Positions 6,892-30,906 of a DNA stretch of 38,716 nucleotides are shown piece by piece. How positions within the stretch are numbered: position 1 is the stretch's first letter; the number at the start of each line of letters is the position of its first letter. This stretch comes from Thiotrichaceae bacterium (lineage in GTDB: Bacteria > Pseudomonadota > Gammaproteobacteria > Thiotrichales > Thiotrichaceae), in assembly GCA_023144895.1 (NCBI GenBank), contig JAGLEV010000019.1:1-38716 (forward strand). The letters run 5' to 3'. The position numbers and the translations under genes were made by a program. The notes under the pieces are model-generated. The model was not told the DNA's origin and did not search any database. It worked only from the letters and a program-made list of their open reading frames with translations.

Positions 6892-7944
6892 TTAGCCGTT
6901 TTTAAGTAAATCTCTTAAATCAATCAAAGCAGCATTGGCACGAGAAATATACGATGCCATCACTAATGAATGATTCGTTACAAAGCCAAAGCCACTTCCA
7001 TTGAGAATCACAGGGCTCCAAACAGAAGCTTGAGCCATTTCTAACTCACGGATAATCTGTTGTATGCTGGCTAATGCATTCTTCTGTTTTAACACACTTC
7101 TAAAGTCATATTCAATGGCTTTAAGAATATGTAAAATCGCCCAAGTCTGCCCCCGTGCTTCATAAAAAACATTATCAATTTTCATCCAATCGGTTTTAAC
7201 AACAATCTCAGATGTTGATGTTGAGCTAGATGTTGCCGCATTATCACCTGCTAAATCTGTATTCACTCGTTTTTGAACGACGCTAGCACTCAAGTTTTGT
7301 GAAAGTGAGCCTAGGCGTTTTTGTATCTGATTTAAGAGAGAACGCAAATTATCAGCACGAGCAAAAAACTGCGCCTTACCCTTAGTGAGCTGTTGAAGAT
7401 AAGCATCAACCTTTTTACGACCTTTGTTATATTCACCCTCAGCAGAAGGTATCATCCATGATTTACTATCAATATTAAAAAAAGTTTGTGCTGAAACTAA
7501 ATACTTATTTTCAACAGATTGTGATTGAGAGCGGCTCAGATCATCACGTAGAGACAGCGACAAATCACGAATATGTGTTAACACACCAAATTCCCAGCTA
7601 GGAATATCATCCATTATAACACCAGGTGGCAACTTGTCGTTCTCAAGATATCCACCAGATTTATCAAGTAGTGTCGACATCATGTGTGACAGCGTTGCAG
7701 CAGTAACAGCACCATTGACTAAATTTTCACTTTCTTTGATACCCGTCATTTCACGAGCATTTTTGATGACATCAAAAGGCTCTGGCTCACTACTCCATAT
7801 AAACATAAGGACAAACATAGCAATAACAGCCGTTATTGATAATAAACCCAGTGTCCATTTTAGACCTTTTTCCTTCCAGACCTTGGGGTTGTAGTAGCCT
7901 ATAACCTCTTTGGATTTTTTTGCGGTATCGATGATAACTGTCAT
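6892..7944 (-). CDS. DUF2333 family inner-membrane protein
   Basis: I recognise the DUF2333 family by its single N-terminal membrane segment (LKWTLGLLSITAVIAMFVLM) followed by a long soluble, mostly helical domain that would lie in the periplasm. Function is unknown. I start it at the ATG at 7944 (MTVIIDTAKKSKEVIGYYNP, 350 residues) because an upstream ATG at 8061 would add a 39-residue tail unlike the family, and because AGGA lies about ten bases before 7944. The C-terminal half contains conserved-looking blocks such as ARGQTWAILHILKAIEYDF and a helical end that includes VMASYISRANAALIDLRDL. It is transcribed alone, divergently from the hydrolase gene. Confidence 0.8.
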   Translation of the reverse strand: MTVIIDTAKKSKEVIGYYNPKVWKEKGLKWTLGLLSITAVIAMFVLMFIWSSEPEPFDVIKNAREMTGIKESENLVNGAVTAATLSHMMSTLLDKSGGYLENDKLPPGVIMDDIPSWEFGVLTHIRDLSLSLRDDLSRSQSQSVENKYLVSAQTFFNIDSKSWMIPSAEGEYNKGRKKVDAYLQQLTKGKAQFFARADNLRSLLNQIQKRLGSLSQNLSASVVQKRVNTDLAGDNAATSSSTSTSEIVVKTDWMKIDNVFYEARGQTWAILHILKAIEYDFRSVLKQKNALASIQQIIRELEMAQASVWSPVILNGSGFGFVTNHSLVMASYISRANAALIDLRDLLKNG

Positions 7945-8150
7945 GTCATTGTATTCCTGTTGCTTTATTTTTAGTCTTGAAATGTCACAAGAGACTATAG
8001 CAACAAACTTGCAGGATACATACTGTATTGTTTGATTTCTAGGCTTATGCAAGTGATACAATGTCTGTCGCTGTTTTGTCAGAAAGGTGTATGTTTGGAT
8101 ACAGATGGGCTAAATTCAATAAAATATCTTTCAGTTATTAGAGTTTTTTA

Positions 8151-9904: not shown

Positions 9905-11038
9905 ATGTCACAATATCAGCTCATAACCAACGGACAACTGGGTTCTTTTAAAATGAAAGGCTATGCCTTGCGTTATAGTTCCTTTGTGCCACGACTTTAT
10001 AATTTAACAAAATCATTAGGTTTTACTCCTAATAAGATCATGCCATCTCGTGCTTTTTGTTCAGACGAGAGTCAGGGCTTTCCGATTATTTTAATCGCCA
10101 AACATTTTGGTGCTTTCCCCTTTAATCATGGAAGAGTTGGTGGCATGATCGCCTTAGATCGCCATGGGCCGCATGCACATCATGGCTTGGATATGGTCAT
10201 TATTCATGCCAGTCATGTGGGATATGATAAAGATAGCCAACAGTATGGTGTTTATCGTCGCTTACAAACAGAGCCAGCGTGCAATACTTCAAATTGTGGC
10301 AAAATTGATGGAGTCTTAACATGGTATCTACAGCAGTATGAATATGCTAAGACCCATGTTTTTATTTCCAAGCAAGCGTATAACTACTCGATTATTATTG
10401 ATAATGAATTGCTTAATGAACAGCGCAACAGTGGTATTGTCTTAGCCTTAGAAAATCTTATTGAAGCCGATGATGCGGGTAATTTTCAGGTACTAGAAAA
10501 TTTAAGCACTGCGAAACGTTTTGCCTTAGTAAGCAAGCGTCGTGCAATAATGGAAAAAATGGATATTAAAGAAGGTGATGTCCTTCCTATTGGTGATTTA
10601 TTAACACCTAAGGACTTTAGCTTTAAAAAATCGACGACTGACCACATGGAAATGAATCTATTGCCTGCAATGCCCATCATCGTTTCTTCTGCATCGCCCA
10701 TGTTAAAAGCGGCACAGGTGAGTACACAGGTTGAGTTTGATCGTGGCTTTAGAAGTATTAGCCAAGATAGCCATTATAATGGTAAAAATGTTCTGTTTAT
10801 TTCTGGACTCAATGTGGATATTTCACCCAAATCTGGGCAGATATTTCCACTGACAAAATTTATTCCATGGGCTGTTTTTCATCAAAGCAGTGATGGTCAG
10901 CAAACCGTTTGGGAACAAGAAGAAGTATTGAAACGCTTACAGGCACAGCCCGAAGAAAATAATGATCAGATAGAGCTGGATAGTGCCATTAGTGATATGG
11001 AGTCTTATCAAGAAATCTTTTTGCATGAGCCTTCTTAG
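9905..11038 (+). CDS. LCIB/LCIC-type beta-carbonic-anhydrase-like protein
   Basis: 377 residues, no signal peptide or membrane segment. The first half keeps the layout of algal LCIB-family carbonic anhydrases: a Cys-X-Asp-Glu motif (Cys52-Ser-Asp54-Glu55), a GGMIALDRHGPHAHH loop matching the GGV loop, a strand ending in His104 (HASHVGYD, compare PHIGI), and Cys131 in NCGKI (compare ACGAL). Cys52, His104 and Cys131 would be the zinc ligands and Asp54 the catalytic aspartate. Near residue 300 VLFISGLNVDI resembles the LCIB C-terminal strand. Known members interconvert CO2 and bicarbonate; activity here is inferred. The start is uncertain: there is no strong Shine-Dalgarno, and Met17 is an alternative. 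It appears monocistronic. Confidence 0.65.
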   Translation: MSQYQLITNGQLGSFKMKGYALRYSSFVPRLYNLTKSLGFTPNKIMPSRAFCSDESQGFPIILIAKHFGAFPFNHGRVGGMIALDRHGPHAHHGLDMVIIHASHVGYDKDSQQYGVYRRLQTEPACNTSNCGKIDGVLTWYLQQYEYAKTHVFISKQAYNYSIIIDNELLNEQRNSGIVLALENLIEADDAGNFQVLENLSTAKRFALVSKRRAIMEKMDIKEGDVLPIGDLLTPKDFSFKKSTTDHMEMNLLPAMPIIVSSASPMLKAAQVSTQVEFDRGFRSISQDSHYNGKNVLFISGLNVDISPKSGQIFPLTKFIPWAVFHQSSDGQQTVWEQEEVLKRLQAQPEENNDQIELDSAISDMESYQEIFLHEPS

Positions 11039-11078: not shown

Positions 11079-11993
11079 CTAAAGCTTGACCTGCTTTGGC
11101 TCAGAATCATTTTTCACCATTTTCTTAGCTTTAGTAAAAACAGCTAATATTAACCAAATCCCAACCAATCCCAGTGATAATAAAACCCAAAAAACAATAA
11201 AGACTTGAGCTGTCCAAGTGATCGCAACATTAAGCCGATGAGCCAGTGATATGACTTTAAAGACAGGTTTACGTACTTCCTTTAAAGTAAACTTAACCGT
11301 ACAAAACTCATTTTTCTCATCAAATTCTCCTAGGCTCACACCTAAATCTTGTATTTGATTTTCAATGACTAAGAGGCGATTAGTGAGTTCAATCATTTCA
11401 CTGACACTGCCACCACTTTGTTTTAATGCAACGAGTGAATCACGAGCCTTTTGCAATGATACCCGTTTAGCTTCTAGCTTATTATATTCATTCGTTTTAT
11501 CTTTCTTGTCAATTTGAATTCGTTTAACTTCACCAATGGCTTTTAGTTTCTCAATAATACTTTCAAACTTATCAGGAATAACCCCTAAGGCAATATTGAG
11601 CCGTCTTGCTTGAGCTAAACCTGAACGTTGTTCTAGCTGAATCATGAGTTCTTGGGATTGAATTAATTGGTATAAAGTCTTTTCACTCTTATCATATTCT
11701 TTTGTTGTATTGGAAAGACTCCCTACTTTTTCATACTTTTGATCCACAGAGCTGGTTTGTACTTGTTGTTGCCTTGCCGTTTTATAGAGCATTTTTTTAC
11801 TGGCATAGTTCTTTCTTGAAAGCTCAAAGCTAGCAAGCGGATTATTATAGGTAGTAGAGGGCTTGCTATAGCCATTAGGATAAGTAATATAACCATAAAC
11901 CAACCGCATTAAAAATAGCAGAATGAAGAAGGCAAGGATGAAGAGAAGTTTCTTTTTAATTGATAATGTTGACATAGCGGTGGAGTATAGCAT
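11079..11993 (-). CDS. DUF4349 domain membrane protein
   Basis: 304 residues: an N-terminal membrane segment (about 14-35), a long charged helical or coiled-coil region (about 115-225) containing LEAKRVSLQKARDSLVAL and LTNRLLVIENQIQDL, then a second membrane segment (about 265-287) with a basic cytoplasmic tail. This two-membrane-helix layout with a central heptad-rich region ending in IENQIQDLGV is what I associate with DUF4349. Function is unknown. The ATG at 11993 has AAGG close upstream; Met7 (11975) lacks any Shine-Dalgarno, so I keep the longer form. It is divergent from miaB with only 68 bases between the starts. Confidence 0.75.
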   Translation of the reverse strand: MLYSTAMSTLSIKKKLLFILAFFILLFLMRLVYGYITYPNGYSKPSTTYNNPLASFELSRKNYASKKMLYKTARQQQVQTSSVDQKYEKVGSLSNTTKEYDKSEKTLYQLIQSQELMIQLEQRSGLAQARRLNIALGVIPDKFESIIEKLKAIGEVKRIQIDKKDKTNEYNKLEAKRVSLQKARDSLVALKQSGGSVSEMIELTNRLLVIENQIQDLGVSLGEFDEKNEFCTVKFTLKEVRKPVFKVISLAHRLNVAITWTAQVFIVFWVLLSLGLVGIWLILAVFTKAKKMVKNDSEPKQVKL

Positions 11994-13877: not shown

Positions 13878-14873
13878 CTAAATAAGTTCAATGAGTTGCT
13901 TCGCGGATTTCAGTTTAAATCGACTCCAAAAAGGTGTTTTCCCAAGATCCCACGAATGACCTGAGTCTGTATAAATGATAGTGTGTATTTCTTTGTTTTC
14001 AATTAACGGGATAATTTTATCTTCAATCTGACTTAAACCCTGCTGCCATGCTGTCATATCATTGAGTTGGCTGGCATTAATGAGTTCATCATGGATAATA
14101 ATAGATGAAGTGTGGGGGATCCCATTGTGATGCTCATAATAATCCAGTGAAAAATGTTGGGCTAGTCGCTGTCCTTGCTCACCACCGCCTTGGATGCATT
14201 GAGCATTAATCTTTAGAGGCTGGCTCAGTGATTTATCCTTTCTATCCCATAACCAAAAACTTTGTACCTGTTCTTGTCGAGCAAGCTCTCGTTGTTGATT
14301 TGTTGGAGAATTATAAAGTAACATTTGTAATTCATTGAGTTGCTTACCCCATGCAATTTCAATTTTCCCTTCCATTAAGTCACGTAAACTAGCACCGAGG
14401 GCATTATTGATGGGAATGGTTTTTTTGGGTTTATCTTTTTGATTGAGCAATAAAAACCAAGTGCCCATCGTGCTCACTTTAAACTCCCAGCCATCTTGAG
14501 AAAAATGACGATTAAGCTCTTTACAGAGTGCTTGTTGCTGCTCAGAACTAATATCTTCAATCACAAAATCACCGATAACAATATCAGACATACCCGCTGT
14601 CATGCTAATGGGTGAGGCGCAAAGGATGGCTTGCTCTGTTGTTTGATTGAAATGTGCATGATATAACTGCTCAGCATAAGAAAAGCTGTGGTGTTTTTCT
14701 GCGAGTAAAATACAGGCATGTTGTAACCAATGTAGAGCAGGGTAGTCTGTTCTTTTTGCTCTATTTAAATGCTTAACAAGCAATGTCGTTGCGGTGAAAT
14801 GGTAGTCTCGTTGCCATATTTTTAGTGGTGAGAGTAATGAAGGGATAAAAATATAGTGTGTTTCTTTATTCAT
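13878..14873 (-). CDS. RpfE/COG4255 family protein (phosphoglycerate-mutase-like annotation)
   Basis: 331 residues, soluble. The blocks CASPISMTAGMSDIVIGDF, LNRHFSQDGWEFKV, KQLNELQMLLYNSPTNQQRE and VQSFWLWD match the family annotated as RpfE-type regulatory protein or 2,3-bisphosphoglycerate-independent phosphoglycerate mutase-related protein. I know of no proven biochemical role. The C-terminal third (GIPHTSSIIIHDELI, IHTIIYTDSG) has alkaline-phosphatase-like strand patterns but I cannot place metal ligands. It is transcribed with the small HMA gene and is divergent from the class V aminotransferase. Confidence 0.7.
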   Translation of the reverse strand: MNKETHYIFIPSLLSPLKIWQRDYHFTATTLLVKHLNRAKRTDYPALHWLQHACILLAEKHHSFSYAEQLYHAHFNQTTEQAILCASPISMTAGMSDIVIGDFVIEDISSEQQQALCKELNRHFSQDGWEFKVSTMGTWFLLLNQKDKPKKTIPINNALGASLRDLMEGKIEIAWGKQLNELQMLLYNSPTNQQRELARQEQVQSFWLWDRKDKSLSQPLKINAQCIQGGGEQGQRLAQHFSLDYYEHHNGIPHTSSIIIHDELINASQLNDMTAWQQGLSQIEDKIIPLIENKEIHTIIYTDSGHSWDLGKTPFWSRFKLKSAKQLIELI

Positions 14874-25874: not shown

Positions 25875-28800
25875 ATGTCACATATAGTAAAGAGCTTCAT
25901 TTTGAAGCTTTTAATACTCTTATTTATTGCAACAACACCGACTACATATGCAGAGATTACCGTGAAAGAAGTAGTACAAGGTAATGGTGCTGAGGGTACT
26001 TTTCAGCTTAGTCATGAACTTCAGGCAGGTGATGATCGTGTCATTATGGTGGGAGTCTCACTTGAAGACGTGAATGCAATAGGGCAGGTAACTAATATTC
26101 AATACGGTGGTGTTGCAATGACTGTAGTGCCTAATAGTCAATCATCAAAGCAAACAGGTTCTTATTCGATTGCAACCGCTTGGTATGTTCTATTGGATGC
26201 GGCTCTTCCTGCAATAGGAGATCAGAATCTTAGCATCCAACATGATGCAAATGATCTTACCGTTGTCGTGATGCAATTAGAGGGTGTTGATCAGGCACAA
26301 ACCTTTCAAGTGGCTAATCATGGTGCAGCAAATACAGGCAGTTTAACGACAAGTATTATGACAAACACTACAAATAATCTATTGATAGATATTTTAGGAG
26401 GTGGTCATCCTCAAAGTCGAGCTACTTTTTCTTCCACAGGACAAAGCTTGCAACAATGGACAGCCAATGCCACTAGTAGTCAAAGTATCGGTATTCTAAG
26501 ATTATTACCAACAGTGGGTAATCATAGTGTGACCTATCAAACCGCTGGTATTAATCGAATGGCACACTCAATGCTAGCAATAGCCGCCACTGATTCAACG
26601 GGTGGAGGTACTGGTGGCGGCAATACTGGAATGCTAGGGATATCAAGCAGTGCCTCAAGTCAGCTAGCCACATTAACCTACCCACATACATTAGGTGCTG
26701 GGGAGAAACGTGTTGTGATTGTCGGTGTTGAGATTGAGTCAGCTGGACAAGCACAACATGCTAGCGTAGTACAATATGCGGGTATTACTATGCACCCTGT
26801 ACCCCTTTCTTATGCTCCTATTACTTCGTCTTCCTATGCTTTGAGTACTGAGTTGTTTTATCTTGAGCAGAGTGAGTTGCCTATCGCGGGTAATCATACC
26901 GTTTCTATTCAACATAATGGACTAGAAGTCACCAGCACCACAACCGAAGTGAATAATGTGGTGGTTGATGGTATTTATAACGGTTTGACGAAGACGACGG
27001 TTAGCTCAGGGTCACTCCATCTTGATGTCAATGTGGCGACAGAAGAAGGCTTAATGTTGAGCTTTATTGCTGGGGGAAAACCCAGCCCAATAATCCAATC
27101 AACATCAAGCCAGAACCTTATTGCCAATACTTTTGCGAATAGTAGTCACTCCGTGATGACAAGTAGAGAAATATCAACAATAGGTAACTATGCCGAATCA
27201 TGGCAAACATCACAAATGAATCGAGCCGCTTTATCGGTTGTTATTTTATCGGCTATTGAAGGTGATGGGAATGGTGGCGGTGGCGGTACAGGTACTGAGG
27301 CAGAAGTCACATTAGGTGATGCTAATGGTGCAGGTGGTCAAGGGGGTGATTTAAGCTACCAACATAATCTGAGTATTGGAGAAAATAGAGTCATTGTTGT
27401 TGGTGTAGAGATAGAATCAGGTAGTGACGCAGGGCGTGCTAATAACGTAGAGTATGCAGGCATTGCCATGAACCCAGTACCTGACACTTATGTATCCGCC
27501 ATTTCAGGATCTTACTCTATAAGTACTGAGTTATTCTATTTAGAGGAAAGTGAATTACCCACAGAAGGAAGCAACACCATCAGCCTTCAACATAATGGTA
27601 TAGAAGCAACAAGTACTGCGGTTCAGCTTATTGGGATTGCTGTTGGGGGAAATTATACCAGCTTAACCACTACAGGGATTGCACCCCAATCGGTAAGTCT
27701 CAATACCGACGTGACGATGGAACAGGGGATGATCATTAGCTTTGTGGGTGGTGGAAATCCTAGCCCAAGAATGCAAGCGGGTGTGAATCAAAATATCGTG
27801 ACAGAGGCGATGGCAAGTAGTAGTCACTCATTGATGTCAAGCCAAGCGATTACGGCAATAGGAAGCTATACAGAATCATGGCAAACACCTCAAATGAACC
27901 GAGTCGCTCTATCTGTCATGATTTTACCCGCACTGAGCTCAGGTAGTAACACAACGACCCTAGTCACTCGTGATCTTAATGACACAGGAATTGATACTTG
28001 TGTTGATGATATTACCAATGCCAATTTAATTGATTGTGCACAAACTCTATTACTTCATCAAGATGGAGCGGTTGGTAGAGATGTGGATAACAATGATTCA
28101 AATGATGGTCATGTTGGTTTTGCATTTACTAAGCTTGATGCTACAGGTGCTGACCTGCCCGTTATTGCCGCAGATTGGTCTTGTATCCGTGATAATGTTT
28201 CAGGCTTAATTTGGGAGAAAAAGTCAGTGGCAGGTTTACATACAGCCAATGACCAGTATGCCTATTACAATCCTAGCAGATTCTATCCAGGTTATGAGCA
28301 ACCTGAGGACGGTATAGAAGGTTTTGCTGCGGGTGACTTCTTAATGGAAGAGTTAAATAACAATGTTTGCGATGGTTATGACAGTGCAGATTCAAGTACT
28401 TTCTGTAATACCACAGCGTATACACAACGAGTGAATGATGAGGCTTATTGCGGTATTAGCAACTGGCGCTTGCCCGACAGAGAAGAAATGCGCTCTATTG
28501 CTGATTTATTTACAATGTCTTATGGTGTGGTAAATATTGATACTAACTTTTTCCCCAATACCATTGGATCAACCAAAATATGGCAAACTAGTCAGCCTCC
28601 TTATGGTAAAGGACCAGGTTATGCAACATCGGATACTGCATTAGAGTACCCTGATAAAAGCTGGATGGTTTATTTTGATGACCCTGAAATTGATCATGCA
28701 ATGACTCAGCGAGAAGTGCGCTATGTACGCTTAGTTAGTGGTAATCCAGTCGATACAGAGGCGACAGCTCGTTTTGTTATTAATGGCAGTACAGTGAAGG

Positions 28801-29219
28801 ATAAGCAAACAAACCTCATCTGGAAACGTTGTGTTGAAGGGTATCGTTTTGATGATAATGATACGGCAACAAACTTTAATGATGATCACTGTGTTGCTGA
28901 AAATACCAGTGCTTTTAATTATGCCGAGGCTTTGGGTTTAACAGGTAGTACTTATGCCAGCCAAAATACATGGCGAGTTCCTAATATTACTGAGTTGATG
29001 AGCGTCGTTAATGTTAAGGATATTTATCCAGCCGTTGATTCACGTGTCTTCCCTGATTTACCAGGAACTAGCTATAGTAGTTCAGCTAATATCCATTGGA
29101 CATCATCCATACATACTGGTAATCATCACAGTGGATGGGCGGTAAACTTCTGGAATGGTGGCGATAGAGTGAAAGGAATGGAGACAACGTATTCTGTACG
29201 TTTAGTGCGAAACCCTTAA
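25875..29219 (+). CDS. Exported three-module protein with two DUF1566/Lcl-type C-terminal domains
   Basis: 1114 residues. A signal peptide (cleavage after TTYA, residue 26) is followed by three related modules of about 215 residues (about 27-240, 252-460, 476-688). Each carries a GE-x-RVIxVGVEIES-like strand, then YAGI-x-MxPVP, a LFYLE-x-SELP segment and a terminal WQTxQMNRxALSVxIL. Gly-rich linkers (TGGGTGGGNTG, GNGGGGGTGTE) separate them. Then come two DUF1566-type domains (about 693-953 and 962-1114) with ISNWRLPDREEMRSIAD, TWRVPNITELMSVV and repeated VRLV ends. DUF1566 is the Lcl C-terminal fold, known in surface adhesins. I infer a surface or secreted binding protein. The modules are not a family I can name. 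No sorting signal is visible. Confidence 0.75.
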   Translation: MSHIVKSFILKLLILLFIATTPTTYAEITVKEVVQGNGAEGTFQLSHELQAGDDRVIMVGVSLEDVNAIGQVTNIQYGGVAMTVVPNSQSSKQTGSYSIATAWYVLLDAALPAIGDQNLSIQHDANDLTVVVMQLEGVDQAQTFQVANHGAANTGSLTTSIMTNTTNNLLIDILGGGHPQSRATFSSTGQSLQQWTANATSSQSIGILRLLPTVGNHSVTYQTAGINRMAHSMLAIAATDSTGGGTGGGNTGMLGISSSASSQLATLTYPHTLGAGEKRVVIVGVEIESAGQAQHASVVQYAGITMHPVPLSYAPITSSSYALSTELFYLEQSELPIAGNHTVSIQHNGLEVTSTTTEVNNVVVDGIYNGLTKTTVSSGSLHLDVNVATEEGLMLSFIAGGKPSPIIQSTSSQNLIANTFANSSHSVMTSREISTIGNYAESWQTSQMNRAALSVVILSAIEGDGNGGGGGTGTEAEVTLGDANGAGGQGGDLSYQHNLSIGENRVIVVGVEIESGSDAGRANNVEYAGIAMNPVPDTYVSAISGSYSISTELFYLEESELPTEGSNTISLQHNGIEATSTAVQLIGIAVGGNYTSLTTTGIAPQSVSLNTDVTMEQGMIISFVGGGNPSPRMQAGVNQNIVTEAMASSSHSLMSSQAITAIGSYTESWQTPQMNRVALSVMILPALSSGSNTTTLVTRDLNDTGIDTCVDDITNANLIDCAQTLLLHQDGAVGRDVDNNDSNDGHVGFAFTKLDATGADLPVIAADWSCIRDNVSGLIWEKKSVAGLHTANDQYAYYNPSRFYPGYEQPEDGIEGFAAGDFLMEELNNNVCDGYDSADSSTFCNTTAYTQRVNDEAYCGISNWRLPDREEMRSIADLFTMSYGVVNIDTNFFPNTIGSTKIWQTSQPPYGKGPGYATSDTALEYPDKSWMVYFDDPEIDHAMTQREVRYVRLVSGNPVDTEATARFVINGSTVKDKQTNLIWKRCVEGYRFDDNDTATNFNDDHCVAENTSAFNYAEALGLTGSTYASQNTWRVPNITELMSVVNVKDIYPAVDSRVFPDLPGTSYSSSANIHWTSSIHTGNHHSGWAVNFWNGGDRVKGMETTYSVRLVRNP
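25953..27940 (+). repeat. Three tandem coding modules of about 640 bases
   Basis: Modules at roughly 25953-26595, 26628-27255 and 27300-27940 encode homologous protein segments. Modules 2 and 3 are closest at the protein level (shared STELFYLE-x-SELP, IQHNGLEVTST compared with LQHNGIEATST, SSHSVMTS compared with SSHSLMSS), while module 1 is more diverged. DNA identity is patchy, so the duplications are not recent. Confidence 0.7.
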
Positions 29220-30108: not shown

Positions 30109-30906
30109 TTAAAGTTTAGGTGCTTGAGGAACATACATAGGATAAGGGCTACCATCATCCATTAGAACAGGAGAGCTGTCACTTTGTGAGCTTTTCAGTA
30201 CAAAGATTTTTCTTGGTTGGCTGTATTGGTAACTCGATTGAACCCAGCTAGAACCCGCATTGTGCTCAAAATAATTAATATTAATATCAATCTGATTAGC
30301 CTTGTGACTAATAGTGAACTCTCCACCCATCGTTGAATCACCTAAGGCATTAAATGAGAGGTTGCTGAGTTTACGTTGGTAGCCTTGTGTACTACTAATA
30401 CAGCTTAAAAGACGTACCCTATCCTTACTATTACGCTCAATAAAAAGATAGTCTTTTAATTGATCATGATTAAAATCATAGCTAATCAGCCCATGAGTTA
30501 CAGGGTATTTAACCTGTGTTTCATAGCGAAAAGAATGATAAATAGAACGTACAGGACGATACTTTCCTAAAGGGTCTCGACAACTTGATGGAATTTGTAC
30601 TTTGTTATCAGGGTTAAGTGATGAACTGATGTGAACTTTACATTCTTTCAGTAATTTATCACGTGCTTTAGTCTCTGAGGCACTAATTTTATAACGTACC
30701 GTTTCACACCAATGTTGGTGCCCTGCTTTATTGTTGCTCCAGCGTAGTCCGTGATAATCACAACTTAATTTAATATTTTCAGTATGTTGTTTACTTGCAG
30801 TGCGTGCATAAGTTTCACAATCTATGGTACGGTTAGCACTGGCACTGGATGAGAATATGACGGTACTGACGAGTACGAGATAGGGAGTAGTGTGTAATTT
30901 ATACAT
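30109..30906 (-). CDS. Exported protein of unknown function with a VCBS/EF-hand-like loop
   Basis: 265 residues that I do not recognise. A signal peptide ends near SSSASA-N (residue 25). The mature N-terminal part (about 26-120) has five cysteines in the pattern of a small disulfide-bonded domain (CETYARTA, LSCDYHGLRW, HWCETVRYK, LKECKVH, SSCRDPLG). The second half contains ISYDFNHDQLKDYLFIE, resembling the Asp-rich calcium loop of FG-GAP/VCBS repeats, then beta-rich sequence and a Pro-rich end. It is probably periplasmic or surface exposed. It lies between two other exported-protein genes on the same strand but with long gaps, so an operon is not evident. Confidence 0.7.
   Translation of the reverse strand: MYKLHTTPYLVLVSTVIFSSSASANRTIDCETYARTASKQHTENIKLSCDYHGLRWSNNKAGHQHWCETVRYKISASETKARDKLLKECKVHISSSLNPDNKVQIPSSCRDPLGKYRPVRSIYHSFRYETQVKYPVTHGLISYDFNHDQLKDYLFIERNSKDRVRLLSCISSTQGYQRKLSNLSFNALGDSTMGGEFTISHKANQIDININYFEHNAGSSWVQSSYQYSQPRKIFVLKSSQSDSSPVLMDDGSPYPMYVPQAPKL

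What the first reader, a model, noticed from the sequence alone, without database searches (positions are those of the whole stretch)
9905..11038. LCIB/LCIC-type carbonic-anhydrase-like protein in a gammaproteobacterium
The protein keeps the order and spacing of the Cys-X-Asp-Glu, PHIGI-like His and ACGAL-like Cys motifs of algal LCIB proteins, which work in the carbon-concentrating mechanism. A chemolithoautotrophic host could use it for CO2 capture, yet no carboxysome, RuBisCO or bicarbonate transporter gene is nearby. The long C-terminal part (about residues 150-377) beyond the zinc half deserves comparison with algal members.
Basis: partly seen in the sequence, partly recalled or inferred. 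Interest (0 to 1): 0.6.

Follow-up and report, generated by a model that had tools for sequence, protein, structure and literature searches.

The report
LCIB-type carbonic anhydrase of sulfur bacteria
A bacterium related to sulfur oxidisers carries a distant cousin of the algal protein LCIB, very likely a zinc enzyme that interconverts CO2 and bicarbonate; in about a third of the related bacteria examined the same gene lies near genes for CO2 fixation or bicarbonate uptake, although not in this stretch of DNA.

Summary
The 377-aa ORF at 9905-11038 is an LCIB-family protein: PF18599 above cut-off, and a confident AlphaFold model (pLDDT 87) whose eight best PDB chains are all LCIB family (PtLCIB4 Z 20.8, 222 of 241 residues). 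The puzzling C-terminal part is a beta-rich insert (about 152-246) followed by the second half of the LCIB fold. C52, H104 and C131 match PtLCIB4's zinc ligands C46, H102 and C126; with D54, H93 and R119 they are invariant in 32 of 32 aligned rows. A genome scan confirmed 302 relatives; the 80 shown are mostly Gammaproteobacteria of sulfur-oxidising groups. The window has no carbon-fixation neighbours, but 32 of 103 distinct loci (window included) carry carboxysome/RuBisCO, DabA, SulP or Mrp genes in the fetched stretch, against 2 of 40 control stretches. The host has RuBisCO (form II by model), DabA and one alpha-CA, but no Pro_CA-type beta-CA and no CsoS2. Best reading: a cytoplasmic zinc carbonic anhydrase of inorganic-carbon acquisition. 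Activity is untested. New variant of a known kind.

The parts
9905..11038 (+). LCIBx gene, 377 aa, LCIB-type carbonic-anhydrase-like protein
9971..10396 (+). residues 23-164, the part matched by Pfam PF18599 (profile positions 3-147 of 223; zinc half)
10058..10069 (+). Cys52-Ser53-Asp54-Glu55: first zinc cysteine (PtLCIB4 C46) and CxDE motif; Ser53 stands where PtLCIB4 has Ser47
10181..10183 (+). His93, invariant; probable equivalent of PtLCIB4 His88 (inferred)
10214..10216 (+). His104, zinc ligand by motif alignment (PtLCIB4 H102)
10259..10261 (+). Arg119, invariant; probable active-site Arg of LCIB (inferred)
10295..10297 (+). Cys131, second zinc cysteine (PtLCIB4 C126)
10358..10642 (+). residues about 152-246: beta-rich insert relative to canonical LCIB; boundaries are my reading; no clear PDB match when folded alone
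10643..10933 (+). residues about 247-343: second half of the LCIB fold (two helices, then the GLNVDISP and LTKFIPWA strands)

Best explanation
The gene makes a cytoplasmic zinc carbonic anhydrase of the LCIB family. Cys52, His104 and Cys131 hold zinc, which activates water; Asp54, Arg119 and His93 complete the active site; CO2 and HCO3- are interconverted. Across the lineage it serves inorganic-carbon acquisition: with DabA/Mrp or SulP it helps hold or regain carbon as HCO3-, and in carboxysome-bearing relatives it could recapture leaked CO2, as proposed for algal LCIB. In this host, with form II RuBisCO, no CsoS2 and no Pro_CA, it more likely equilibrates HCO3- and CO2 for RuBisCO and for biosynthetic carboxylases. 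Shown: gene, family, predicted fold, residue conservation, gene neighbourhoods. Inferred: zinc binding, catalysis, direction, partners, location in the cytoplasm.
For: PF18599 above cut-off. Model pLDDT 87.1, pTM 0.86; the 8 PDB chains (6 entries) with E<=0.001 are all LCIB family; PtLCIB4 Z 20.8, LCIB Z 16.9, LCIC Z 16.6, then a beta-CA Z 8.8, then 6.0. C52/H104/C131 correspond to PtLCIB4 zinc ligands C46/H102/C126 (figure legend, PMC6352938; alignment). Active-site residues invariant in 32 of 32 and 103 of 103. Ser53 is kept where the PtLCIB4 S47R mutant has Arg; PtLCIB4 is reported active (PMC9614477 passage). Neighbours named by Pfam on representatives: 29 of 103 loci have cso/RuBisCO, DabA or SulP against 2 of 40 controls, p=0.003; 32 with Mrp, p=0.0008. 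All 10 family genomes with both LCIBx and CsoS2 have them on one contig within 34 kb, 8 of them in one genus. RuBisCO in 27 of 29 LCIBx genomes against 19 of 34 without, p=0.001. Host lacks Pro_CA.
Against: No activity or zinc is shown. Algal LCIB has shown no quantified CA activity in vitro (PMC9614477 and PMC5876011, passages); PMC5876011 even says none of three characterised homologues was active. The window has no carbon-fixation neighbour and 61 of 103 loci have none of the markers. The RuBisCO link is not significant in genomes at least 90% complete (21 of 23 against 18 of 24, p=0.24), and DabA presence does not track LCIBx (18 of 29 against 18 of 34, p=0.61). Related genomes are not independent. 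The window protein is on a long branch (1.06). Recalled: a free cytosolic CA short-circuits a carboxysome-based mechanism.
Confidence: 0.65

Rival explanations
1. A plain housekeeping carbonic anhydrase that replaces the usual bacterial beta-CA (Pro_CA), supplying HCO3- to biosynthetic carboxylases, with no special part in CO2 concentration.
For: Host has no Pro_CA. Among 47 family genomes at least 90% complete, Pro_CA is in 14 of 23 with LCIBx and 22 of 24 without, p=0.017; the three of these with neither Pro_CA nor alpha-CA (G045, G047, G055) all carry LCIBx. No carbon-fixation neighbours in the window.
Against: Over all 63 genomes the Pro_CA contrast vanishes (15 of 29 against 23 of 34, p=0.30) and 15 genomes have both. 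G047 and G055 also have DabA and CsoS2. Neighbourhoods in relatives point to carbon uptake and fixation. The host has an alpha-CA and a DabA.
Confidence: 0.2
2. A non-catalytic or regulatory relative: a CO2/HCO3- sensor, or a scaffold or barrier near RuBisCO or transporters, as has been proposed for LCIB/LCIC.
For: Absence of quantified in vitro activity of algal LCIB and a proposed barrier role (PMC9614477, PMC5876011, passages); an insert of about 95 residues could bind a partner.
Against: The probable active-site residues are invariant, which a dead enzyme would not need; Ser53 matches PtLCIB4, reported active.
Confidence: 0.1
3. A hydrolase for carbonyl sulfide or carbon disulfide; beta-CA-related enzymes with such activity are known in a sulfur bacterium.
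For: Named hosts are mostly from sulfur-oxidising groups (ecology recalled); COS hydrolase of Thiobacillus thioparus and its kinship with beta-CAs (titles and starts of abstracts of PMC8209446 and PMC5745022; CS2 hydrolase recalled).
Against: Recurring neighbours are carbon-uptake and fixation genes; the fold is LCIB, with an ordinary beta-CA only at Z 8.8.
Confidence: 0.05

Closest known systems
PtLCIB4 (diatom) and PDB 6kfs, LCIB family (PF18599; also filed as theta-CA, PMC7215798 passage)
   Same: Whole LCIB fold: Z 20.8 over 222 residues with 5b5y, Z 20.5 over 223 with 6kfs; Cys-Ser-Asp-Glu with Ser at the S47 position; zinc ligands C46, H102, C126 correspond to C52, H104, C131.
   Different: 16% identity over the aligned residues; an insert of about 95 residues; NCGK in place of CCGx; a profile of the lineage finds no LCIB chain in the PDB by sequence at E<=10.
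Chlamydomonas LCIB/LCIC
   Same: Same fold, Z 16.9 and 16.6; tied to CO2 fixation.
   Different: Chloroplast proteins without quantified in vitro activity (PMC9614477, PMC5876011 passages); here bacterial, near carboxysome or transporter genes in many relatives.
Canonical bacterial LCIB (L033, 246 aa, genome G177 of the same class)
   Same: PF18599 family; CSDD, GPHIGI and CCGA motifs align.
   Different: Full-length Pfam match at 254.9 bits against 28.7 here; shorter, so no room for the insert; G177 is not found by the lineage profile.
DabA of the DAB/DAC complex (PF10070)
   Same: Beta-CA-like fold and CO2 hydration in chemolithoautotrophs (PMC13144422, abstract and passages); encoded near LCIBx in 6 of 80 named loci.
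   Different: About 1100 aa with a membrane partner; the window protein has no PF10070 match at E<=1.
CsoSCA, carboxysome shell carbonic anhydrase
   Same: A CA in some of the same gene neighbourhoods.
   Different: Other Pfam families; where both are present LCIBx is not simply its substitute.

Membership tests
LCIB family (PF18599) | Profile match above the curated cut-off | tested here: met
   29.8 bits, cut-off 25; profile positions 3-147 of 223 only
LCIB family (PF18599) | LCIB fold along the whole chain | tested here: met
   Predicted model, Z 20.8, 222 of 241 residues of PtLCIB4
LCIB family (PF18599) | Cys/His/Cys zinc residues and CxDE motif | tested here: met
   Motif alignment (weak score), ligands of PtLCIB4, invariant in 32 of 32
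LCIB family (PF18599) | Zinc bound and the three residues converging in space | not testable with these tools
   No coordinates or metal; inferred from the fold match
LCIB family (PF18599) | CO2 hydration activity | not testable with these tools
   Needs an assay
Ordinary beta-carbonic anhydrase (PF00484) | Pro_CA profile match | tested here: not met
   No Pro_CA hit for the protein at E<=1; none in the host genome
DabA (PF10070) | DabA profile match | tested here: not met
   No hit at E<=1
COS/CS2 hydrolase | Hydrolysis of COS or CS2 | not testable with these tools
   Needs an assay; no sequence test was made

The most novel reading that the evidence does not exclude
LCIBx is an unrecognised third element of the CO2-concentrating mechanism of chemolithoautotrophic bacteria: an LCIB-type enzyme, gated or one-directional, that recaptures CO2 leaking from carboxysomes or from RuBisCO and works with DabA, Mrp or SulP, so that algae and sulfur bacteria use members of one protein family for the same leak problem; the insert would be its docking or control element.
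Probability: 0.3. Interest if true: 0.8.

Novelty: new variant of a known kind. Interest (0 to 1): 0.58.

Why it matters
How LCIB works in algae is unsettled: it is thought to capture CO2 as HCO3-, yet no activity has been quantified in vitro (PMC9614477 passage). A bacterial lineage with the probable active site intact, encoded near carboxysomes and carbon uptake systems in genera with cultured members (Thiothrix, recalled), offers a system in which enzyme and role can be tested. It also adds a carbonic anhydrase that Pfam's cut-off mostly misses (6 of 25 LCIBx genomes pass it in the class sample) to the carbon budget of vent, seep and symbiont bacteria.

Tried and rejected
An early thought that the host might be a Legionella relative and the protein an injected effector (acidic C-terminus) was dropped when the named relatives proved to be Thiotrichaceae, Thiothrix, Cocleimonas, Sedimenticola and the like; it was not tested further. 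Single-sequence searches gave nothing: PDB phmmer at E<=10, first genome-contig scan. The profile search of the PDB gave one unrelated hit, E 1.5. The insert folded alone (pLDDT 82.9) found no match at E<=0.001 (best 0.14, riboflavin synthase N-domain) and no Z of 5 or more (best 3.5); this shows neither that its fold is new nor that it differs from known ones. DabA and alpha-CA presence gave no signal.

Dropped rows: G130's class-scan match (24.9 bits, stops inside) was judged spurious, so 25 rather than 26 genomes are counted and G130 stands with the 344 others. L060, L093, L096 and L137 (of the 120 loci L046-L165) left the tree because my ORF caller gave no LCIBx ORF there; rows identical over the compared core were merged. 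Of 32 matches in the family 28 were fetched with their surroundings; of the class genomes only the 11 found by PF18599 (12 loci; 13 others found by A1 alone were not fetched). In tables alone, two of those 13 (G351, G403) have RuBisCO on the same contig within about 13 kb. Invariance of C52-E55 among the 80 named loci is partly by construction, since one of the two scan patterns contained CSDE; the 32 rows of A1 came from protein and Pfam-profile searches.

Papers: Jin et al. 2016 (PMC5187666) and Wieschollek et al. 2024 (PMC11409652) are not held. In searches (listings and starts of abstracts) I saw no paper that ties an LCIB homologue to chemolithoautotroph carbon uptake; PMC13144422 names LCIB only in its reference list, and the word is absent from PMC12628692.

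Full report
What was checked. The ORF 9905-11038 on the plus strand encodes 377 aa from an ATG. Pfam's LCIB_C_CA (PF18599) matches residues 23-164 with E 4.6e-7, 29.8 bits against a cut-off of 25, over profile positions 3-147 of 223. NCBIfam has no match at E<=1. I call the lineage LCIBx.

Lineage. The host genome has one copy. In the family coded f1, 29 of 63 genomes have a match, two of them (G007, G013) short fragments; in an even sample of the class, 26 of 369, of which G130 looks spurious. PF18599 itself rings in 13 of those 369 and passes its cut-off in 7, one of which (G177, locus L033) is a canonical 246-aa bacterial LCIB that the lineage profile does not find. So the cut-off sees 6 of 25 LCIBx genomes, although 31 of 32 members of A1 match the model at E<=0.01. 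A scan of 84,980 species' genomes confirmed 302 relatives, of which only the best 80 were shown. Their titles name Thiotrichaceae, Thiothrix, Cocleimonas, Sedimenticola, lucinid, Solemya and tubeworm symbionts, Chromatiales, Contendobacter, Methylophaga and unnamed Gammaproteobacteria; one title each names Desulfobacteraceae, Deltaproteobacteria and Puniceicoccaceae. That many of these groups oxidise sulfur is recalled knowledge.

Anatomy. With an alignment of 32 rows AlphaFold gave pLDDT 87.1, pTM 0.86. Foldseek's 8 PDB chains at E<=0.001 (6 entries) are all LCIB family (6kfs 1.7e-9, PtLCIB4 1.9e-9, LCIB 4.6e-6, LCIC 1.2e-4), the next being E 0.09. VIA-align gives PtLCIB4 Z 20.8, rmsd 2.9, 222 residues, model range 16-343; LCIB Z 16.9; LCIC Z 16.6; a fungal beta-CA Z 8.8; then rows from 6.0 down. 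As 222 of about 328 model residues in that range are aligned, roughly 105 are extra. From the order of secondary structure I place most of them at about 152-246, between the Cys131 helix and two helices (247-261, 265-287) followed by two long strands (295-306, 316-327) that correspond to the last strands of LCIB. These boundaries are my reading, not a tool output. Folded alone the insert has no clear PDB match.

Active site. An hhalign comparison with the canonical L033 protein pairs C52 with CSDD, H104 with GPHIGI and C131 with CCGA (E 0.0039 but probability only 8.6%, a single template sequence). PtLCIB4's zinc is held by C46, H102 and C126 (figure legend in PMC6352938), and counting in the printed PtLCIB4 sequence puts these in the same motifs. 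Comparison with the S47R crystal mutant shows that residue 47 lies between Cys and Asp; here it is Ser53. PtLCIB3 and PtLCIB4 are said to appear constitutively active, whereas LCIB lacks quantified in vitro activity (PMC9614477, passages); another review says none of three characterised homologues was active and ties this to disorder of His162/161 and Arg194/193 (PMC5876011, passages). His93 (for His88, by count) and Arg119 are my inferred equivalents. C52, D54, E55, H93, H104, R119 and C131 are identical in 32 of 32 rows and in 103 of 103 (with the reservation on CSDE under Tried and rejected); Ser53 in 102 of 103.

Neighbourhoods. In the window the neighbours are a TAP-like alpha/beta hydrolase, a DUF4349 protein, MiaB and DUF2333 and DUF3144 proteins; of 15 marker profiles built from neighbour clusters only LCIBx matches. 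Relatives differ. Of 80 named loci, 12 hold SulP, 6 DabA, 16 NADH-quinone/Mrp-type membrane subunits, 10 CitMHS-type and 10 NhaD-like transporters, and 3 RuBisCO or carboxysome genes; of 40 loci from family and class genomes, partly the same loci, 11 hold RuBisCO or carboxysome genes and 3 DabA or SulP. Of 40 control stretches of 20 kb that I took at round positions from 15 of the same genomes, 2 hold SulP, 3 LysR and none any other marker. Pfam names of single representatives: RuBisCO_large, RuBisCO_small, CsoS2_M, CsoSCA, BMC, EutN_CcmL, LysR, VWA; CbbQ and Mrp subunits; DabA, Sulfate_transp, Proton_antipo_M. After merging duplicates, 29 of 103 rows (window included) have cso/RuBisCO, DabA or SulP (p=0.003 against controls), 32 with Mrp (p=0.0008), 42 with CitMHS/NhaD also counted (p=1e-5), and 61 none. 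The loci average 12-16 kb and many are cut by contig ends; the controls are longer, but they come from fewer lineages. On a quick tree (30 of 100 inner branches poorly supported) the label linked/not changes at least 19 times and the carboxysome label 3 times, so the link is not one inherited event. In 27 of 102 loci a gene of a wider marker set (with CitMHS, NhaD, LysR and CbbO) is the next ORF, and in 12 it is on the same strand within 150 bases. In the family, 10 of 14 CsoS2 genomes have LCIBx, and in all 10 both lie on one contig within 34 kb; 8 of the 10 are of one genus.

Host. The genome (100% complete, 103 contigs) has one RuBisCO of 460 aa that passes NCBIfam NF010002 (874.8 bits, cut-off 489) and fails the form III model's cut-off and that of NF003252, another large-subunit model; NF010002 is, as I recall, the form II model and NF003252 the form I one. 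Beside it lie CbbQ_C/AAA, VWA and LysR genes. There is one DabA, no Pro_CA, no CsoS2 and one alpha-CA. SulP, gamma- and iota-CA genes were not sought in the host genome.

Co-occurrence. In the class sample RuBisCO (or RuBisCO-like) genes are in 20 of 25 LCIBx genomes and 167 of 344 others, p=0.003; in the family 27 of 29 against 19 of 34, p=0.001, where one of the 27 (G022) is a fragment below cut-off. Among 47 family genomes at least 90% complete it is 21 of 23 against 18 of 24, p=0.24. Pro_CA: 14 of 23 against 22 of 24 in those, p=0.017, but 15 of 29 against 23 of 34 in all, p=0.30. CsoS2: 10 of 29 against 4 of 34, p=0.04. DabA and alpha-CA show no trend. Relatedness is not corrected for, nor the number of tests.

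Reading. Family membership is close to certain. Catalysis is likely because the probable active site has not drifted in a lineage that otherwise varies by half. A part in carbon acquisition rests on neighbourhoods that recur in separate branches. A tension remains: from established knowledge (recalled), a freely active cytosolic CA defeats a carboxysome-based mechanism, so next to carboxysomes the enzyme should be tethered, gated or one-directional, as DAB2 is described (PMC13144422, abstract seen) and as unidirectional hydration has been hypothesised for LCIB (PMC5876011 passage). In the window's host, without CsoS2, that tension does not arise, and the enzyme may simply serve form II RuBisCO and carboxylases. 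The window copy is on a long branch (1.06; nearest L046 at 59%), yet it departs at only 7 positions that are at least 90% conserved, within the range of the rows, 0-14, so decay is not indicated.

Noticed in passing
L004, L005, L023-L028, L032 (family f1 genomes): A second, more distant LCIBx subgroup (about 42-47% to the window) forms its own clade; in G003, G008 and G021 it occurs together with the main type, and in four loci (L146, L148-L150) an aminotransferase class I/II gene lies next to it.
   Followed up: partly
L127, L129-L134, close to LCIBx: A protein of about 210-214 aa, in the one representative scanned with a weak BMC match in its C-terminal part (PF00936, 2.4e-6), lies between LCIBx and the carboxysome operon; possibly a CsoS1D-like shell protein (name recalled).
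   Followed up: no
window 25875-29219: 1114-aa ORF with Lcl C-terminal domains (PF07603) as its only Pfam match; the rest is unassigned.
   Followed up: no
window 13878-14873 and 30109-30906: Two ORFs of 331 and 265 aa with no Pfam match at E<=1e-5.
   Followed up: no
window 6892-8061 and 11079-11993: DUF2333 and DUF4349 proteins of unknown function on the minus strand on either side of the finding.
   Followed up: no
L047, L049, L050, L054, L065, L066, L099 and others: CitMHS-type transporters (one scanned has TrkA_C domains) and NhaD-like ones lie near LCIBx; possibly sodium handling for bicarbonate uptake.
   Followed up: partly
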